Part shown: piece after piece, positions 1,085-56,308 of the stretch
Position numbering within the stretch: the stretch's first letter is position 1
Layout of the letters: each line of letters begins with the position of its first letter
Source of the DNA: an uncultured Bacteroidia bacterium
GTDB lineage: Bacteria > Bacteroidota > Bacteroidia > Bacteroidales > UBA932
Direction of reading: 5' to 3'
Length of the DNA: 64,000 bases
Assembly (NCBI GenBank): GCA_902789245.1
Contig: CADAND010000002.1
Span: 1-64,000 of the forward strand
The notes under the pieces: model-generated
Seen by the model: the letters and a program-made list of their open reading frames with translations, nothing else
What the model was told of the DNA's origin: nothing
The model's database searches: none
Program-made: the position numbers and the translations under genes

Positions 1085-1090
1085 GGGAGA

Positions 1091-1118
1091 TGCCCGATCA
1101 GGCCGGGCATGACGAGGA
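1091..1118. repeat. REP-like palindromic repeat, copy 1
   Basis: Arms TGCCCG and CGGGCA flank ATCAGGC, followed by ATGACGAGGAAGGC. The core and right flank closely resemble the copy at 2188-2220, and the core is shared with copies at 27713, 41106 and 42011. Confidence 0.7.
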
Positions 1119-1916: not shown

Positions 1917-2225
1917 GAAAGCGAAGCGCAGCGCCTCCTGACAGCAGAGCCGGGAGCGGAGAGGGCCTTCAGCGCTCCCGGAACACGATTATTTCGACTT
2001 CCGGGAGCAAATACCGGCCTTTCTGCTCCCGGCGGCTCTCTGGCAACGGGTCTGGGGCAGGAGATGCCCGGCGGCTCCGGCAGCAGGACTGGAATGGGGC
2101 GCAAAACAGGGCTATTTTGCACCCCGATGCCGGTTGAAACTGGTTTTGGGGTGCAGGAATGGGCGGTTTTGCACCCTGACAGCGGGTTGCCCGATCAGGT
2201 CGGGAATGATGAGGAAGGCGGCCGT
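1917..2225. other. repeat-rich intergenic stretch
   Basis: No gene is supported. A nested inverted repeat lies at 2118-2155, with outer arms TGCACCCC and GGGGTGCA and inner arms CCGGTT and AACTGG. A second TTTTGCACCC stretch occurs at about 2167-2176. Copy 2 of the palindromic repeat is at 2188-2220. Confidence 0.5.
2188..2220. repeat. REP-like palindromic repeat, copy 2
   Basis: Arms CCCGA and TCGGG flank TCAGG; then AATGATGAGGAAGGC, nearly the same right flank as the copy at 1091. It lies just beyond the 3' end of the winged-helix gene (2226-3269, minus strand). Confidence 0.7.
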
Positions 2226-39755: not shown

Positions 39756-41014
39756 TGGAAGTGCTGGATGTCCGCAAAGGGGAGCACGTGGCTCTGGTGG
39801 GGCCCAACGCCTCCGGCAAGAGCCGCCTCGCGTCCGCATTTGCCGGCCGCGCCGGCGCGAAATTCATCACCTTCCGCGACTCATACGGGAGCTACGGCGA
39901 CCGCAATTTCTTCATGCAGCAGCGCTGGAACCTCTTCACCCTGGAGGGGGAGCCGCCCTCGGCGGGGGAGCAGCTCCGCAAGGAGGCGCAGTCCGACCGG
40001 GACCCGGCGGCGGCCCTTCGTCGGCTCTCCGAGCTGACGGCCCTGTTCGGCCTGGAGAAGGTCCTGGACAAGCCGCTGGTGACGCTCTCGTCCGGCGAGC
40101 TGCGCAAATTCCAGCTCACGCGCGCCCTGCTCGGCGGGCCGCAGATCCTGGTCATCGACAATCCTTTCATCGGGCTGGACCCGCGCACGCGCACCCTGCT
40201 GACGCACCTGCTCGCGTCGCTGAGCGAGCAGACCACGCTGGTGCTAGTGCTCTCCCGCGTGGCGGAGATTCCGCCGTTCATCACGCACGTCGTACCCGTC
40301 GCGGACGGGCAGATGGGGGAGAAAGTGCCTCTGGAGGCCTATCTGGACGCGGTCCTGCCGCCGGCCGTCATCCGCATGCGCGGGGTCACGGTCCGCTACG
40401 GCGAGCGCGTCATCCTCGACGCGCTGGACTGGACGGTCCGGGAGGGGGAGCACTGGGCGCTGACCGGCGCCAACGGCAGCGGCAAGAGCACGCTTCTGAG
40501 CCTGATCTGCGCCGACAATCCCCGGGCCTATGCCTGTGATATCGAGCTCTTCGGCCGGCCGCGGGGGAGCGGGGAAACGATTTGGGACATCAAGCGCAAC
40601 ATCGGCTACGTGAGCCCCGAGCTGCACCGGGCCTTCCAGGTGGACGCCCCGGCGCTGGACATCGTGGCCAGCGGCCTCTTTGACACGGAGGGACTGTTCC
40701 GGCATCCTTCCGAGGAGCAGTATGCCTGCACGCGCCGCTGGATGGCGGAGTTCGGGATTGAAGAGCTGGCCGAAAAGCCTTTCCTGCGCCTCTCCAGCGG
40801 GGAGCAGCGCATGTGCCTGCTGACCCGCGCCTTCGTGAAGGATCCGCGGCTGTACGTGCTCGACGAGCCGCTGCACGGCCTCGACGAACCCCGGCGGCGC
40901 CGCGTCAAGGCCCTGCTGGACCGCTTCTGCGGCGCCCCCGGCAAGACCCTGCTGATGGTCACGCACTATCCCGAAGAATACCCCGCCTGCATCGACCACA
41001 GCCTCACGCTGTAA
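39752..41014 (+). CDS. twin-domain ABC ATPase (ModF-like)
   Basis: A 420-residue protein with two ABC ATPase domains and no membrane segment. Domain 1: Walker A ALVGPNASGKSRL, signature VTLSSGELRKFQL, Walker B ILVIDNPFIGLDP. Domain 2 (from about 205): Walker A ALTGANGSGKSTLLSL, signature LRLSSGEQRMCLLTRAF, Walker B LYVLDEPLHGLDEP. In domain 1, N-P replaces the usual D-E-P of Walker B, so it may be inactive or weak. The layout resembles ModF (PhrA), whose function is poorly defined. No permease lies nearby. It overlaps tcdA by 4 bp and the convergent glycosylase gene by 11 bp. Confidence 0.8.
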   Translation: MMEVLDVRKGEHVALVGPNASGKSRLASAFAGRAGAKFITFRDSYGSYGDRNFFMQQRWNLFTLEGEPPSAGEQLRKEAQSDRDPAAALRRLSELTALFGLEKVLDKPLVTLSSGELRKFQLTRALLGGPQILVIDNPFIGLDPRTRTLLTHLLASLSEQTTLVLVLSRVAEIPPFITHVVPVADGQMGEKVPLEAYLDAVLPPAVIRMRGVTVRYGERVILDALDWTVREGEHWALTGANGSGKSTLLSLICADNPRAYACDIELFGRPRGSGETIWDIKRNIGYVSPELHRAFQVDAPALDIVASGLFDTEGLFRHPSEEQYACTRRWMAEFGIEELAEKPFLRLSSGEQRMCLLTRAFVKDPRLYVLDEPLHGLDEPRRRRVKALLDRFCGAPGKTLLMVTHYPEEYPACIDHSLTL

Positions 41015-41582
41015 ACAGCCGCCGATACGCCTCGGCCTTCTTCTCCAGGGCCAAAGGATAGGCGCGGGAAGTGGAAGGCATGCGCCAGAATTGGACTTTC
41101 CTGTCATTCCCGACCTGATCGGGAATCTCAATCAGCAAACTCTCCCCGACCGCCGGCACCCCGCAGCCGAAGGCCGCGGCGACCACCTCGGCGGCTTTCT
41201 GGCCGGTGGTTATCAGCGCTTTACACTTCGGAATCCGGCGGAGCAGCGCCGGGATGTCCGTGGGCGCAACGACTTCCAGGAAGGCGTCGGAGGCGTTGTC
41301 CTTCAGGCGCCGGACCTCGCAGGCGGTGTCGTAGAAGGCTAGGCCCTCCTGCGCGCAGAAAGCGCGGATGGCCGCCTCGTCAAAGCGCTTTTCGCCGGGG
41401 AGGCAGAAATGGTTTTTATCCTCAAAGAAGATCAGACCGAGGATCCGCCAAAAGTCGTTGCTAAAATTAGGATAGTAGAATGGCATGCTCCAACGGTGCG
41501 GCTGCGGCGGGAAGCTGCCGAGGAAGAGCATACGCGCCTCCGGCGGCAGGAAGGGCTCGAAGGGATGTTTCTCAGTGGGCAT
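41004..41582 (-). CDS. uracil-DNA glycosylase superfamily protein, with an in-frame palindromic repeat
   Basis: This 192-residue protein belongs to the UDG superfamily. MLFLGSFPPQPHRWSMPFYY and NDFWRILGLIFF hold the conserved GSFP active-site region near residue 20. VRRLKDNASDAFLEVV and FWRMPSTSRAYPLALEKKAE hold the C-terminal SR loop. Between GES and FWRMPSTS the residues IPDQVGND are encoded exactly by a copy of the palindromic repeat (41106-41126). Relatives recalled from memory have a shorter loop there. It is the last gene of the minus-strand operon and overlaps the upstream gene by 11 bp. Its base specificity is not known. Confidence 0.8.
   Translation of the reverse strand: MPTEKHPFEPFLPPEARMLFLGSFPPQPHRWSMPFYYPNFSNDFWRILGLIFFEDKNHFCLPGEKRFDEAAIRAFCAQEGLAFYDTACEVRRLKDNASDAFLEVVAPTDIPALLRRIPKCKALITTGQKAAEVVAAAFGCGVPAVGESLLIEIPDQVGNDRKVQFWRMPSTSRAYPLALEKKAEAYRRLFTA
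41106..41126. repeat. REP-like palindromic repeat, copy 4, inside a coding region
   Basis: Perfect 8-bp arms ATTCCCGA (41106-41113) and TCGGGAAT (41119-41126) around CCTGA. It lies in frame inside the UDG-superfamily gene and encodes IPDQVGN on the minus strand. Confidence 0.8.
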
Positions 41583-42297
41583 GGCCGGACAGGTAAAGCT
41601 GCCGCTCGGCCTCCGGGAATTGCTCGATGGCGTAGCGGAGCATCGTGCGAGGCATCCCTTGATAGCGGGGCTGCAGGTAGGCCACCAGGGCGGCCTTGTC
41701 TTTCTTCCCGGCTTCGCGGAGCAGCCAGCCGACGGCCTTGTGGATGAGGTCGTGCGGGTGGTGCAGGAGGATGTCCGCGATGGCGAAGGTGTCCGCCAGT
41801 TGTCCGTGGCGGACGAAAGTCATGGTGCTGACGATGCCGATACGCTGCTCCCAGAGCGACTTGCCGCTGCGCGCCAGCTCGTAGAGCAGGGTGCGGTCCT
41901 TGTCCAGCAGCCATTCGCCCAGCAGCGGATAGCATGACAGGTCCACCAGGTCCCAGTTGTTGATGCGGCCGGTGTGGGCGAGGTAGAAATCGACGCACGC
42001 CGCCTGCGTCATTCCCGGCCTGGCCGGGGATTTCTTCGAATGCCTGAAGACCTCCACCAGCGCGAGCAGCGCGGCGAGCCGCACTTCGTGGAATTCGTTC
42101 CCGATGCACGCTTCGAGCGCCGGGAAGTCCACGCTCCGCCAGCAGTCCTTCACGACGGCGCGCGTCACGGGGACCTTGATGCCGAGGAACTTATCGCCCT
42201 CACCGTACTGGCCGGGGCCGGTTTTGAAGAAGCGCGCCAGGCCCGCTACCTGCGTGTGGTCGGCGTGCGAGAGCATCTGTTCCAGCAGGGGGTTCAT
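41572..42297 (-). CDS. DNA alkylation repair protein (AlkD-like), with an in-frame palindromic repeat
   Basis: The 241-residue HEAT-repeat protein of the AlkC/AlkD glycosylase family should remove alkylated purines. MNPLLEQMLSHADHTQVAGL, FLGIKVPVTRAVVKDCWRSV, GNEFHEVRLAALLALVEVF and HTGRINNWDLVDLSCYPLLG are the characteristic helices; the last contains the catalytic Asp in NNWDLVD. Between RHSKK and DFYLAHTGRINNWD a copy of the palindromic repeat (42011-42031) encodes SPARPGMT. The ATG at 42297 overlaps the stop of the YhfC-type gene, and its end overlaps the glycosylase gene by 11 bp. Confidence 0.87.
   Translation of the reverse strand: MNPLLEQMLSHADHTQVAGLARFFKTGPGQYGEGDKFLGIKVPVTRAVVKDCWRSVDFPALEACIGNEFHEVRLAALLALVEVFRHSKKSPARPGMTQAACVDFYLAHTGRINNWDLVDLSCYPLLGEWLLDKDRTLLYELARSGKSLWEQRIGIVSTMTFVRHGQLADTFAIADILLHHPHDLIHKAVGWLLREAGKKDKAALVAYLQPRYQGMPRTMLRYAIEQFPEAERQLYLSGHAH
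42011..42031. repeat. REP-like palindromic repeat, copy 5, inside a coding region
   Basis: Arms ATTCCCGGCC and GGCCGGGGAT (one mismatch) around a single T. It lies in frame inside the AlkD-like gene and encodes PARPGM on the minus strand. Confidence 0.78.
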
Positions 42298-43073
42298 AGC
42301 TTCTTGGCCAGCATGCAGCCGGCCGCGCCAATGGCGACAGCCATGCTGAAGATGATGATCTCTACAGCGCTGGCACTCACGGACTTGGAGAGCACAACCG
42401 CGCAGGCGTCCACCAGCGCGTGCAGCAGAATGGCAGCCAGGAAAAGCCACAGCCATTTGCCGCCCTTGCGGACCGCCGTCCAGACGAAGACCGACAATCC
42501 CAGGTGGAGCATCAGGGCGGAGATGCGCTCCCACAGGCCCAGCAGAAGCTGGCCGGCATTCAGCTCCTGCAGCTTCATGAACTGCCCCTCCACCTGCTCC
42601 CGCGTTTCGGCCGGGACGGCGGAAAGGATGGTATCCACCTGCCCGGCGTTGATCATCAGCGAGACGACGATATTGGAAATCATCGTGATGCCGAAGATGA
42701 TCAGCATCTCCATGCCGCCGTGGCCGACGCCGTAGGCGACAGCCGGCAGGGCGCCGTCCGGCTCCTTTCTCAGGAGGAACTTCATGCCCAGGAAACGGCC
42801 GCTCTCTTCGAACAGCCCCGCTGCGAGGCCACCGTAAAGCGCATAGTACCAAGTGTTTCCCGTGATCGCTGTGCCGTAGGGCCCCTTTAACACCGCCTGG
42901 TGCAGGACGGGCTCCAGGAGCAGCGCGAAGACGAAGAACACGCCGGCGCCGACCAGGATGGTGCCCAGCCTGGCATGGCGCTTTTTCACCAGCCACCAGG
43001 CCAGCGCGAGGGGCGCGACGATGCCCACCAGGGCACAGACGGCCATCATGGCGAGAGAACTGACCGGGACCAT
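42294..43073 (-). CDS. YhfC-family intramembrane metalloprotease-like protein
   Basis: A 259-residue membrane protein with about seven hydrophobic segments. It carries the conserved polar motifs of the YhfC (DUF2324) family within membrane helices: GLFEESGRFLGMKF (about 87-100), YGVGHGGMEMLIIFGIT (about 115-130) and LLHALVDACAVVLS (about 215-228). The Glu/His sets resemble those of CAAX-type intramembrane proteases, so zinc-dependent proteolysis is presumed but unproven. It lies 3 bp after the TSCPD gene and overlaps the AlkD-like gene by 4 bp. Confidence 0.82.
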   Translation of the reverse strand: MVPVSSLAMMAVCALVGIVAPLALAWWLVKKRHARLGTILVGAGVFFVFALLLEPVLHQAVLKGPYGTAITGNTWYYALYGGLAAGLFEESGRFLGMKFLLRKEPDGALPAVAYGVGHGGMEMLIIFGITMISNIVVSLMINAGQVDTILSAVPAETREQVEGQFMKLQELNAGQLLLGLWERISALMLHLGLSVFVWTAVRKGGKWLWLFLAAILLHALVDACAVVLSKSVSASAVEIIIFSMAVAIGAAGCMLAKKL

Positions 43074-43076
43074 GGG

Positions 43077-43364
43077 CTACAGCATTTTCAACGCCCGGGC
43101 GAGCTGGTCAGGGCAGCTGGTGCCGCGGCCCTTGCAGTTGATGCTCTGCAGGCGGGCGATGACCTCGTCCTTTTTCATGCCGGCGACCAGAGCGCCGACG
43201 CCCTGGAGGTTGCCGTGGCAGCCGCCGGTGTAGCGGACGCTGCGGACGATCTCGCCGTCCAGTTCAATATCGATTTGCTGCGAGCAGACCGCGTCGCAGG
43301 TCAGGAAGGCGGCCTTGCGGATCCCGCCCTCCACGGTGTCGGAGATAAGTGTAACGTCAAACAT
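43077..43364 (-). CDS. TSCPD domain protein (TIGR03905 family)
   Basis: This 95-residue protein is named after its conserved TSCPDQLARAL motif near the C-terminus. Other conserved cysteines are in TCDAVCSQQIDIELDG, TGGCHGNLQGVGAL and INCKGRGTSC. TSCPD domains also occur at the C-terminus of some ribonucleotide reductases, where they may bind a metal; the stand-alone form has no assigned function. The ATG at 43364 starts MFDVTLISDTVEGG. It lies 16 bp after fprA, so redox linkage to that flavoprotein is conceivable. Confidence 0.82.
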   Translation of the reverse strand: MFDVTLISDTVEGGIRKAAFLTCDAVCSQQIDIELDGEIVRSVRYTGGCHGNLQGVGALVAGMKKDEVIARLQSINCKGRGTSCPDQLARALKML

Positions 43365-43380
43365 AAGTGAGAAAGCGTGT

Positions 43381-53977: not shown

Positions 53978-56308
53978 ATGATTAACCAACTGATTTCGAA
54001 GGCTTCGGCCTTCGCCCTGGGCCTTGTCGCCCTCGCTGCCTGCAGCGCTCCTGCCGGCAAGGTGATTCCCGCCATCGCGCCCGATCCGGATGTGGAGGCA
54101 AAAGTAGAAAAGGTCCTCAAGGGGATGACCCTTGAGGAGAAGGCCGGCCAGATGGTCCAGATCTCCATCCTGCAGGTGCAGGACGAGACCGGCGAGAACC
54201 TGGATCCCGCCAAGCTCGAGAAGATCATCGGCGACTACAAGGTCGGCTCCATCCTGAACGTGCTGAACGACCGCGCGCAGAGCCGCGAGAAGACGGCGGA
54301 GCTCGTCCGCCAGATGCAGGAGGTGTCGATGCGCAGAATCGGCATCCCGTGTATCTACGGCCTGGATATGATCCACGGCGCCACCTACCTGACCGACGGC
54401 ACCTTCTTCCCGCAGGAGATCAACCTGGCAGCCACCTTCAACCGTGACTACGCCTTCGAGATGGGCCGTGTGATGGCCTACGAGACCCGTGCCGCCCAGG
54501 TGCCGTGGGTGTTCTCCCCGGTCATGGACCTCGGCCGCGATCCCCGCTGGCCGCGCCACTGGGAGAGCTGGGGCGAGGATCCGTACCTGCAGGCCGAGAT
54601 GGCCCGCGTGGAGACCATCGCCATCCAGGGGGCCGACCCCAATCATGTCGGCCTGGAGAACGCTGCGGTGAGCATCAAGCACTTCATGGGCTACGGCGTG
54701 CCGCTGTCCGGCAAGGACCGCACCCCGGCCTACATCGCCGAGAATGACCTGCGTGAGAAGTTCTTCCGTCCCTTCAAGGAATGCTTCCAGGCGGGCGCGC
54801 TGACCGCGATGGTCAACTCCGCATCCATCAACGGCATCCCCACGCACGCCAACTACGAGCTGCTGACCGGCTGGGTCAAGGAGCAGCTCGGCTGGGACGG
54901 CATGCTCGTGACCGACTGGGCCGATATCGACAACCTCTTCGTGCGCGACCATGTGGCCGCAGACAAGCGTGAGGCCGTGAAAATGGGCATCAACGCCGGC
55001 ATCGACATGATCATGGATCCGTTCGATCCGGAGTGCTGCAACGTGCTCGTGGACCTGGCGAAGAGCGGCGAGATCCCGATGTCCCGTATCGATGACGCCG
55101 TGCGCCGCATCCTGCGTCTGAAGGTCCGCCTCGGGCTCTTCGAGAATCCGACCTGGGACCGCGAGTATCCGGACTTCGCCTCGCCCGAATTCGCGAAGCA
55201 GTCCTACGCCGCCGCGCTGGAGTCCGAGGTGCTCCTCAAGAACGAGGGCATCCTGCCGCTCAAGGGCACGGAGCGCATCCTCGTCACCGGCCCCAACGCC
55301 AACAGCCTGCGCGCCATGAACGGCGGCTGGTCCTACACCTGGCAGGGCTCGGCCGACGACTTCGTGCCGCAGTACAACACTTTCCTGGAAGCGCTCCAGA
55401 AGCGTTTCGGCAAGGTGGTGTACGAGCCGGGCGTGCAGTATGTCAACATCCCGATGGCCTGGGAGGCCGAGGACGCTTCCGGCATCCGCAAGGCCGTGGC
55501 CGCGGCCCGCGGAGTGGACGTGATCGTGGCCTGCGTGGGTGAGAACAGCTATTGCGAAACCCCGGGCAACATGGACGACCTGAACCTGTCGGCTAACCAG
55601 AAAGAGCTGGTGCGCCAGCTCGCCGCCACGGGCAAGCCCGTAATCCTGGTGCTGAACGAGGGCCGGCCTCGCATCATCGGCGACATCGAGCCGCTGGCGA
55701 AGGCGGTCGTGGACGTGATGCTGCCGTCCAATTACGGCGGCGACGCCCTGGCGGCCCTGCTCGCCGGCGACGAGAACTTCTCCGGCAAGCTCCCGTTCAC
55801 CTACAGCAAGCACATCAATGCCCTGCACACGTATGATTACAAGGTCTCCGAGCACCGCGAGGTGATGGAGGGATCCTACAACTACGACGCCGTCATGGAC
55901 GTCCAGTGGCCCTTCGGCTACGGTCTGAGCTACACGACCTTCGCCTACGGCAATCTGGCGTTGAAGACCCCCGCGACGTTCAAGGCGGGCGACGAGATCC
56001 AGCTGAGCGTCGATGTGACGAACACCGGCACGCGCGCCGGCAAGGAGGCCGTGCTGCTCTACAGCTCCGACCTCGTGGCGTCGCTCATCCCGGATGTGAA
56101 GCGCCTGCGCGGCTTCGAGAAAATCGAGCTGCAGCCCGGCGAGACGAAGACGGTGTCTTTCACGGTCCCGGCCGAGGAGCTGGCCTTCGTGGGCGCTGAC
56201 GGCAGGTGGCGGCTGGAGGAGGGCGATTTCCGCCTCAGCTGCGGCGGTCAGTCCGTTATGGTCCGCTGCTCGCAGACCAAGGTCTGGGACACCCCGAATA
56301 TCAACTGA
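53978..56308 (+). CDS. GH3 beta-glucosidase lipoprotein
   Basis: The 776-residue GH3 enzyme releases beta-linked glucose (or xylose) from oligosaccharides. It is a lipoprotein (lipobox VALAAC) with barrel domain motifs IPCIYGLDMIHGATYL and RHWESWGEDPYLQAEMARVE and the nucleophile Asp313 in MLVTDWADIDNL. The alpha/beta sandwich has the RILVTGPNANSLRAMNGGWS stretch and CVGENSYCETPGNMDDLNLS. A C-terminal fibronectin-III-like domain (about 650-760) ends it. Its partner is the GH31 gene 1 bp upstream; together they suit stepwise degradation of xyloglucan oligosaccharides. Confidence 0.92.
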   Translation: MINQLISKASAFALGLVALAACSAPAGKVIPAIAPDPDVEAKVEKVLKGMTLEEKAGQMVQISILQVQDETGENLDPAKLEKIIGDYKVGSILNVLNDRAQSREKTAELVRQMQEVSMRRIGIPCIYGLDMIHGATYLTDGTFFPQEINLAATFNRDYAFEMGRVMAYETRAAQVPWVFSPVMDLGRDPRWPRHWESWGEDPYLQAEMARVETIAIQGADPNHVGLENAAVSIKHFMGYGVPLSGKDRTPAYIAENDLREKFFRPFKECFQAGALTAMVNSASINGIPTHANYELLTGWVKEQLGWDGMLVTDWADIDNLFVRDHVAADKREAVKMGINAGIDMIMDPFDPECCNVLVDLAKSGEIPMSRIDDAVRRILRLKVRLGLFENPTWDREYPDFASPEFAKQSYAAALESEVLLKNEGILPLKGTERILVTGPNANSLRAMNGGWSYTWQGSADDFVPQYNTFLEALQKRFGKVVYEPGVQYVNIPMAWEAEDASGIRKAVAAARGVDVIVACVGENSYCETPGNMDDLNLSANQKELVRQLAATGKPVILVLNEGRPRIIGDIEPLAKAVVDVMLPSNYGGDALAALLAGDENFSGKLPFTYSKHINALHTYDYKVSEHREVMEGSYNYDAVMDVQWPFGYGLSYTTFAYGNLALKTPATFKAGDEIQLSVDVTNTGTRAGKEAVLLYSSDLVASLIPDVKRLRGFEKIELQPGETKTVSFTVPAEELAFVGADGRWRLEEGDFRLSCGGQSVMVRCSQTKVWDTPNIN

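What the first reader, a model, noticed from the sequence alone, without database searches (positions are those of the whole stretch)
41004..42297. Palindromic repeats sit in frame inside two adjacent DNA-repair genes
The sequence shows two copies of one palindromic repeat (arms ATTCCCGA/TCGGGAAT at 41106-41126 and ATTCCCGGCC/GGCCGGGGAT at 42011-42031) within the overlapping UDG-like and AlkD-like genes. Each keeps the reading frame and adds short loops encoding IPDQVGND and SPARPGMT. The same core occurs in non-coding DNA at 1091, 2190 and 27713. Palindromic elements that insert in frame are known from Rickettsia (RPE); I know of no such description for Bacteroidales. That they entered by insertion is inferred from relatives recalled as having shorter loops.
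Basis: partly seen in the sequence, partly recalled or inferred. Interest (0 to 1): 0.8.

Follow-up and report, generated by a model that had tools for sequence, protein, structure and literature searches.

The report
Palindromic repeats recurrently inserted in protein loops
A group of uncultured rumen bacteria carries scores of short palindromic DNA repeats, a quarter to a third of them inside genes without breaking the reading frame, and some protein loops have been hit again and again by different copies, so the repeats seem to act as a continuing source of new loop sequence in ordinary enzymes.

Summary
Window 41103-41127 and 42008-42032 are copies of one hairpin repeat, in frame inside UDG-like and AlkD-like genes; the window has 4 copies against 0.01 expected. 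Site 27713 is only a partial match. The genome has 93 copies with covarying stems; 23 strictly, 33 at most, lie inside genes, at least 9 within a Pfam domain. The repeats match the published CGTC-tagged REP superfamily, known from Bacteroidetes and, in various species, from inside repair genes (PMC3733652): a known kind. What goes further: (1) loops are hit repeatedly: in 61 UDGs the loop changes state at least 23 times by parsimony, and the window and L055, 98% identical elsewhere, carry different REPs; ArgC and AtpG show the same. (2) Two near-identical alkD genes differ by 63 bp, 21 codons, made of a REP pair. (3) A partial 5' copy lies upstream in 34 of 93, commonest spacing 21 bp. No examined RAYT-like gene is immediately flanked by these REPs. 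Best reading: mobile REPs insert, selection keeps in-frame copies in tolerant loops, and loops turn over.

The parts
41103..41127 (+). CGTC-type REP, GTCATTCCCGACCTGATCGGGAATC; read on the minus strand as EIPDQVGND in the UDG-like gene
   Evidence: 0 mismatches to the pattern
42008..42032 (+). CGTC-type REP, GTCATTCCCGGCCTGGCCGGGGATT; read on the minus strand as KSPARPGMT in the AlkD-like gene
   Evidence: 1 mismatch
41004..41582 (-). UDG-superfamily gene, 192 aa, related to DNA-deoxyinosine glycosylase (TIGR04274 41 bits, cut-off 80; Pfam UDG 20.9 bits, cut-off 24.3)
   Evidence: AlphaFold2 model with mean pLDDT 85.6, REP residues 152-160 spanning the turn between strands 147-154 and 160-168
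41572..42297 (-). AlkD-like DNA alkylation repair gene, 241 aa from the ATG at 42297 (the reading frame itself is open further upstream); overlaps the UDG start
   Evidence: Pfam DNA_alkylation, E 4.6e-54
1089..1113 (-). further REP copy, not scored as intragenic
2186..2210 (-). further REP copy (2 mismatches), not scored as intragenic

Best explanation
The two palindromes are copies of a dispersed CGTC-type REP element (tag GTC, 8-bp stem starting AT, 5-nt loop, tail CTC). Shown: 93 copies in the genome, covarying stems, many copies in frame inside genes, and the same loops occupied by different repeats in different species. Inferred: copies are inserted as mobile DNA by an unidentified enzyme; those that break a gene are lost; those that keep the frame and fall in a surface loop or a linker between domains survive. 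By my reading of the two main sequence types, four of the six reading frames have no stop codon, and the most used one encodes a polar peptide (EIPGQARND type). Old copies decay by deletion and new ones arrive, so tolerant loops turn over. In the two window genes the inserts are most likely neutral passengers in loops, not new functions.
For: 93 copies, control 0 and 1. Stem covariation: one pair T-A 63, G-C 18, C-G 6; another G-C 45, C-G 41; a third G-C 50, A-T 37, of 93. 23 copies meet the strict intragenic test and 10 more a weaker one: 33 of 93, in 29 proteins, 26 of 29 with a Pfam match at E 0.001. Comparing coordinates, at least 9 REPs lie inside a Pfam match (UDG, AlkD, MurF, M3 peptidase, glycerate kinase, ArgC, AtpG, MFS, MutY) and others between domains (FtsK, NtrC-like, ECF sigma, MutL, MetH, DsbD). 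Frame counts 18, 8, 4, 3 over the four open frames, p 0.0007 against equal use. UDG loop: at least 23 changes of state over 61 rows; window and L055 98% identical over 174 columns with different REPs, L054 outside them with the window's REP. Same loop hit by different repeats in ArgC and AtpG. A 63-bp in-frame difference made of a REP pair between loci identical at 1488 of 1490 aligned bases. REP residues at a beta-hairpin turn in the UDG model.
Against: No transposition was seen, and no clean empty site with a target duplication was found; the L084/L086 pair looks like a deletion, because the short allele keeps the REP tail. No enzyme can be tied to the REPs. In MutY the REP loop is not longer than in relatives, so insertion is not shown there. 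16 of 61 UDG loops are long without a recognised repeat, so other processes also lengthen this loop. The UDG tree is weakly supported (14 of 57 inner branches starred), and starred branches alone force fewer changes per class (1 to 4). Gene calls rest on codon scores and Pfam, not on expression; some of the 10 weaker copies may lie in overlong reading frames (for example L137, whose REP lies far upstream of its Pfam match). The named relatives are metagenome assemblies.
Confidence: 0.85

Rival explanations
1. Site-preferring insertion: REPs, or the machinery that copies them, favour existing REPs or hairpin-prone DNA, so the same loops are hit repeatedly because an old copy or its remnant marks the site, not only because the loop is tolerant.
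For: A partial head lies upstream of 34 of 93 copies, 27 of the 41 spacings being 18-22 bp. In L055 a new REP seems to sit beside a degraded remnant of the window-type REP (my reading of the DNA). An array of heads ends in one full REP at C4:62060-62150.
Against: Recurrent loops include positions where most relatives show no REP (ArgC; UDG 31 of 61 short loops without a recognised repeat), and many intragenic copies fall between domains or in loops, as tolerance predicts.
Confidence: 0.3
2. Local growth without mobility: repeats arise and spread by slippage, template switching or gene conversion between copies.
For: Direct head repeats with variable spacers; the AlkD REPs of window, L054 and L055 sit at the same site with changed stems.
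Against: 93 dispersed copies on both strands of 21 of the 28 contigs, and different repeat types in the same loop of close relatives, need movement of sequence between loci.
Confidence: 0.15
3. Selected function: the REP-encoded residues or the mRNA hairpins benefit the repair genes (mutator or regulatory effect), as Di Nocera 2013 speculated for replication and repair genes.
For: UDG, AlkD, MutY, MutL and PriA (the last by a Pfam match and a weaker REP call) are among the hit genes.
Against: Equally hit are AtpG, MurF, ArgC, MetH, DsbD, glycerate kinase and others; the UDG loop is not conserved between species. No enrichment test against all genes was made.
Confidence: 0.08
4. The REPs are mobilised by one of the RAYT-like HUH transposases of the genome.
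For: RAYT-like matches are found in 32 of 37 genomes of the genus (own included), mostly several per genome; 24 of those 32 have at least one REP match.
Against: None of the 6 intact RAYT-like genes examined has a REP in its immediate flanks; the nearest is about 770 bp off. 3 of the 6 are flanked by direct repeats of 68-110 bp of another kind. Association in the genus is not significant (Fisher p 0.14). G058 has 21 REP matches and G014 17 without a detected homologue, though G014 is only 70% complete.
Confidence: 0.15

Closest known systems
CGTC-tagged REP superfamily (Di Nocera, De Gregorio, Rocco 2013, PMC3733652; seen: abstract, sections 6, 7, 14, 15, 17 and passages; figures and supplements not seen)
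   Same: GTC tag, 8-bp stem beginning with AT, 5-nt loop, short unpaired tail; dispersed; some copies intragenic, including DNA-repair genes; superfamily reported in Bacteroidetes; no dedicated transposase.
   Different: Tail mostly CTC rather than CCA; base before GTC is C in 39, A in 39, T in 13, G in 2 of 93; head-to-head neighbours not enriched (9 of 93 with an inverted head within 60 bp upstream, background 7.9%); partial heads upstream; repeated hits to the same loops in several genes, of which the paper notes one case (recB of two Xanthomonas species).
Rickettsia palindromic elements (RPE; the 2002 paper looked up is not held, RPEs seen through PMC3733652 and passages of the review PMC10969869)
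   Same: Palindromic repeats in frame in unrelated genes; RPE-4 and RPE-6 are themselves called CGTC REPs in PMC3733652. The ~121-bp element noticed here resembles the longer RPEs (about 150 bp) in size and habit.
   Different: Host is an uncultured Bacteroidales genus, not Rickettsia; replacement at the same loop is seen here across many species.
REP/RAYT systems (passages of PMC6006769)
   Same: Short hairpins with a 5' tag; the genome has RAYT-like genes; the NHVH and YIHRNP letters of the C4 one come close to the motifs given for subclass 2.6, found mostly in Bacteroidetes.
   Different: Tag is GTC, not GTAG; the RAYT-like genes examined are not flanked by these REPs.

Membership tests
CGTC-tagged REP | 5' CGTC tag (TGTC and CCTC variants allowed) outside the stem | tested here: inconclusive
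   the base before GTC is C in 39, T in 13, A in 39, G in 2 of 93
CGTC-tagged REP | stem of 8-9 bp beginning AT, loop of 4-5 nt | tested here: met
   8-bp stem, 717 of 744 cells paired, 5-nt loop
CGTC-tagged REP | 3-nt unpaired tail, mostly CCA | tested here: inconclusive
   tail present but CTC: last two bases T in 80 and C in 79 of 93
CGTC-tagged REP | dispersed repeat family | tested here: met
   93 copies, controls 0 and 1
CGTC-tagged REP | head-to-head dimers predominant (given as typical, not as defining) | tested here: not met
   inverted head within 60 bp upstream in 9 of 93, background 7.9%; dimers further apart were not counted
CGTC-tagged REP | no transposase gene flanked by the repeat | tested here: met
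   6 intact RAYT-like genes examined
GTAG REP/RAYT (REPtron) | GTAG/GTGG tag and flanking RAYT | tested here: not met
   GTC tag; no examined RAYT-like gene flanked by the repeat
Rickettsia palindromic element | palindromic repeat inserted in frame in unrelated genes | tested here: met
   23 strict to 33 of 93 copies, 29 proteins
Rickettsia palindromic element | sequence kinship to an RPE family | not tested
   no RPE sequence was compared

The most novel reading that the evidence does not exclude
In this genus REP insertion and decay form a standing generator of loop diversity: the same loops of core enzymes (UDG, AlkD, ArgC, AtpG) are rewritten repeatedly by different repeat families down to strain level, and the partial heads, most often 21 bp (about two helical turns) upstream, mark the binding or copying site of an undescribed mobilising enzyme for CGTC REPs.
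Probability: 0.3. Interest if true: 0.8.

Novelty: new variant of a known kind. Interest (0 to 1): 0.62.

Why it matters
It shows that in-frame palindrome insertion is common in a lineage far from Rickettsia, with many sequenced species in which gain, loss and replacement can be traced. It also gives a concrete handle (partial heads at about 21 bp, no examined RAYT gene flanked by the repeat) on the open question of what moves CGTC REPs.

Tried and rejected
RAYT association: examined and not supported. An earlier count said that each RAYT-like gene is flanked by its own direct repeats; on recount one search shows this for 3 of 6 (C9:37459, C1:225332, C4:60359), a 30-bp repeat near C9:43264, a 32-bp palindrome near C8:61163, and nothing for C8:80406. 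Solved-structure sequence search for both window proteins: no match at E 0.001. The first UDG loop census used a faulty left anchor that cut some loops short; replaced; its AlkD rows are used. Aligning window blocks with G061 and G062 to find clean empty sites: apart from the UDG loop itself, length differences at REPs lay in intergenic DNA near 56300 without a clean target. A fold of AlkD and a structure search were not obtained, the machine being busy. Hit L152 (3 mismatches) met the strict test but looks like chance; it was dropped, leaving 23 of 24 strict. MutY is kept as intragenic but not as proof of insertion. In the UDG survey one of six search peptides was the REP-encoded EIPDQVGN itself, which can favour REP-bearing relatives; 4 of 65 rows had no readable loop. 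The gene-avoidance p value used an assumed coding share of 0.85 and is not relied on.

Full report
What is there. The window holds four copies of one hairpin repeat, GTCATNCCSGRCYYGRYCSGGNATC, against 0.01 expected in shuffles. Two lie inside overlapping minus-strand genes: a UDG-superfamily protein (Pfam UDG 20.9 bits and TIGR04274 41.1 bits, both below their curated cut-offs) and an AlkD-like protein (Pfam DNA_alkylation, E 4.6e-54). The REPs are read as EIPDQVGND and KSPARPGMT.

Genome-wide. The genome (2.28 Mb, 28 contigs, 95% complete) has 93 copies with up to 3 mismatches, 49 forward and 44 reverse, on 21 contigs; the reversed control pattern gave 0 and 1. The stem pairs in 717 of 744 cells, 65 of 93 stems are perfect Watson-Crick, and three pairs change on both sides together: T-A 63, G-C 18, C-G 6; G-C 45, C-G 41; G-C 50, A-T 37. 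The hairpin itself, not only its letters, is therefore kept.

Inside genes. Scoring codon use on each side of every copy (training on 35 long window ORFs), 24 of 93 have the same best coding frame on both sides, at least 10 bits on each, and read through. I dropped one that looks like chance (L152) and added 10 that score lower on one side, the UDG copy among them because it lies near the gene's end, giving 33 copies in 29 proteins; 33 is the generous count, 23 the strict one. 26 of 29 have a Pfam match at E 0.001; L018, L033 and L136 have none. Comparing REP residues with Pfam coordinates, at least 9 lie inside a matched stretch (UDG, AlkD, MurF, M3 peptidase, glycerate kinase, ArgC, AtpG, MFS transporter, MutY) and several between domains (FtsK, NtrC-like regulator, ECF sigma, MutL, MetH, DsbD). 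Frames used are 18, 8, 4 and 3 over the four that have no stop; the most used is the most polar by my own reckoning.

Recurrent loops. A scan of genome contigs with the UDG protein matched 225 stretches, 64 of which encode a relative, titled Bacteroidales or Bacteroidia (one Bacteroidaceae, one Paludibacteraceae), many from rumen or other gut samples of ruminants. In 61 of 65 rows (window included) the loop before FWRMPS could be read: 31 short (8-17 aa) without a recognised repeat, 14 with a recognised repeat (10 of the window's REP type in at least four readings, 2 of a second type HSERSEES, 2 of a third, FPEAIANP), 16 long and of other make-up. At least one short loop (L064) ends in what looks like a REP remnant. 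On a tree built without the loop the loop state changes at least 23 times (shuffled mean 27.4) and repeat presence at least 9 times; only 14 of 57 inner branches are well supported, and those alone force 1 to 4 changes per class. The window and L055 are sisters (99/92), 98% identical over 174 columns, with L054 outside them (100/99); window and L054 share EIPDQVGND while L055 has VMPGSKTAVMPGTDRAS. The third type was recognised by sequence only; its copy number was not tested. The predicted UDG structure (mean pLDDT 85.6; 78 for residues 151-160) puts the REP residues around the turn between strands 147-154 and 160-168.

Other genes. AlkD: 28 readable loops of 7-84 aa, 7 with a stem of 8 or more (1.0 expected from shuffles), 10 with a REP tag; a second AlkD loop, 17 readable, carries repeats as well. 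ArgC: the window genome has SHSGLDPES, the G008 homologue (84.6% identical) has CHPERSEGS, the second repeat type by my reading, in the same loop, and the other 13 relatives show neither. AtpG: the window genome has VIPGLTRNL and a longer insert; G019 has different REP-like inserts in the same two loops. MutY is inconclusive.

A strain-level difference. L084 and L086, from two assemblies, are identical at 1488 of 1490 aligned bases in the alkD-UDG stretch (98.9% over a longer 2,416) and differ in alkD by one 63-bp segment, 21 codons, holding two REPs head to head and bounded by CCGGCA repeats. The short allele keeps the REP tail, so deletion is the likelier direction. Assembly error cannot be excluded.

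Anatomy beyond the known. A partial head (GTCATNCC, one mismatch allowed) lies within 60 bp upstream on the same strand in 34 of 93 copies, against 7.9% background (p 8e-15), and downstream in 9 of 93; of 41 spacings 27 are 18-22 bp and 13 are exactly 21. With a broader pattern (background 14-19%) the counts upstream and downstream are 36 and 16 of 90 in the own genome, 7 and 2 of 17 in G061, 5 and 0 of 15 in G062, 8 and 2 of 22 in G058 of another family; for G061 and G062 only 15 loci each were held, of 75 and 102 matches. The sections of Di Nocera 2013 that I read do not mention such partial copies; they call head-to-tail dimers negligible.

Distribution and enzyme. With up to 2 mismatches the pattern occurs in 25 of 36 other genomes of the genus, in the own genome, and in 2 of 24 genomes of other families. 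RAYT-like matches occur in 31 of 36 plus own, and weakly in 2 of 24; the association inside the genus is not significant (Fisher p 0.14). None of the 6 intact RAYT-like genes examined has a REP in its immediate flanks, the nearest being about 770 bp off beside the C4 gene; 3 of the 6 are flanked by direct repeats of 68-110 bp of another kind. What moves the REPs stays unknown, as Di Nocera 2013 also concluded for CGTC REPs.

Place among known things. Di Nocera 2013 describes the CGTC superfamily, its presence in Bacteroidetes, intragenic copies, many of them in replication and repair genes, and the identity of RPE-4 and RPE-6 with CGTC REPs. This repeat fits that kind by structure, with differences in tail, dimers and flanking heads. 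Paper searches for the repeat letters and for REPs in Bacteroidetes or Bacteroidales and for in-frame palindromes listed no title or abstract reporting recurrent loop insertion in this group; some searches showed only the first 10-12 of 57, 93 and 37 papers, and the library holds only open-licence papers.

Verdict. The added value is the repeated rewriting of the same loops across species, and probably within one.

Noticed in passing
G000 C4:94358-94478 (AtpG), C13:5025-5194, C5:118265-118387, C15:14376-14497, C8:96744-96864, C9:27629-27735, C1:233784-233879, C8:29537-29612, C15:18434-18527, C8:29424-29494: A second dispersed element of about 121 bp, 10 full or partial copies; 6 of 10 read through with some coding signal on both sides, one of them in AtpG (about residues 58-104).
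   Followed up: partly
G000 C4:60359-61291, C8:80406, C8:61163, C9:43264, C9:37459, C1:225332; C22 split in two frames: Several RAYT-like HUH transposase genes in the own genome and in most genomes of the genus; 3 of the 6 intact ones examined are flanked by direct repeats of 68-110 bp unlike the REPs.
   Followed up: partly
L102, L088, L090, L079, L093, L081, L068 and the own genome: A second repeat, GTCATTCTGAGCGNAGCGAAGAATC, with arms that vary together, 5-32 matches per genome in 8 of 8 genomes searched (16 in the own genome), in some loops read in frame as HSERSEES.
   Followed up: partly
window 41014-43366: The UDG-AlkD segment is inverted in G062 relative to the window; no REP was seen at the ends printed.
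   Followed up: partly
L065, AlkD loop: A tandem repeat of short units (SVQSGQ, SFRSGQ) lengthens the AlkD loop to 84 aa without a recognised REP.
   Followed up: no
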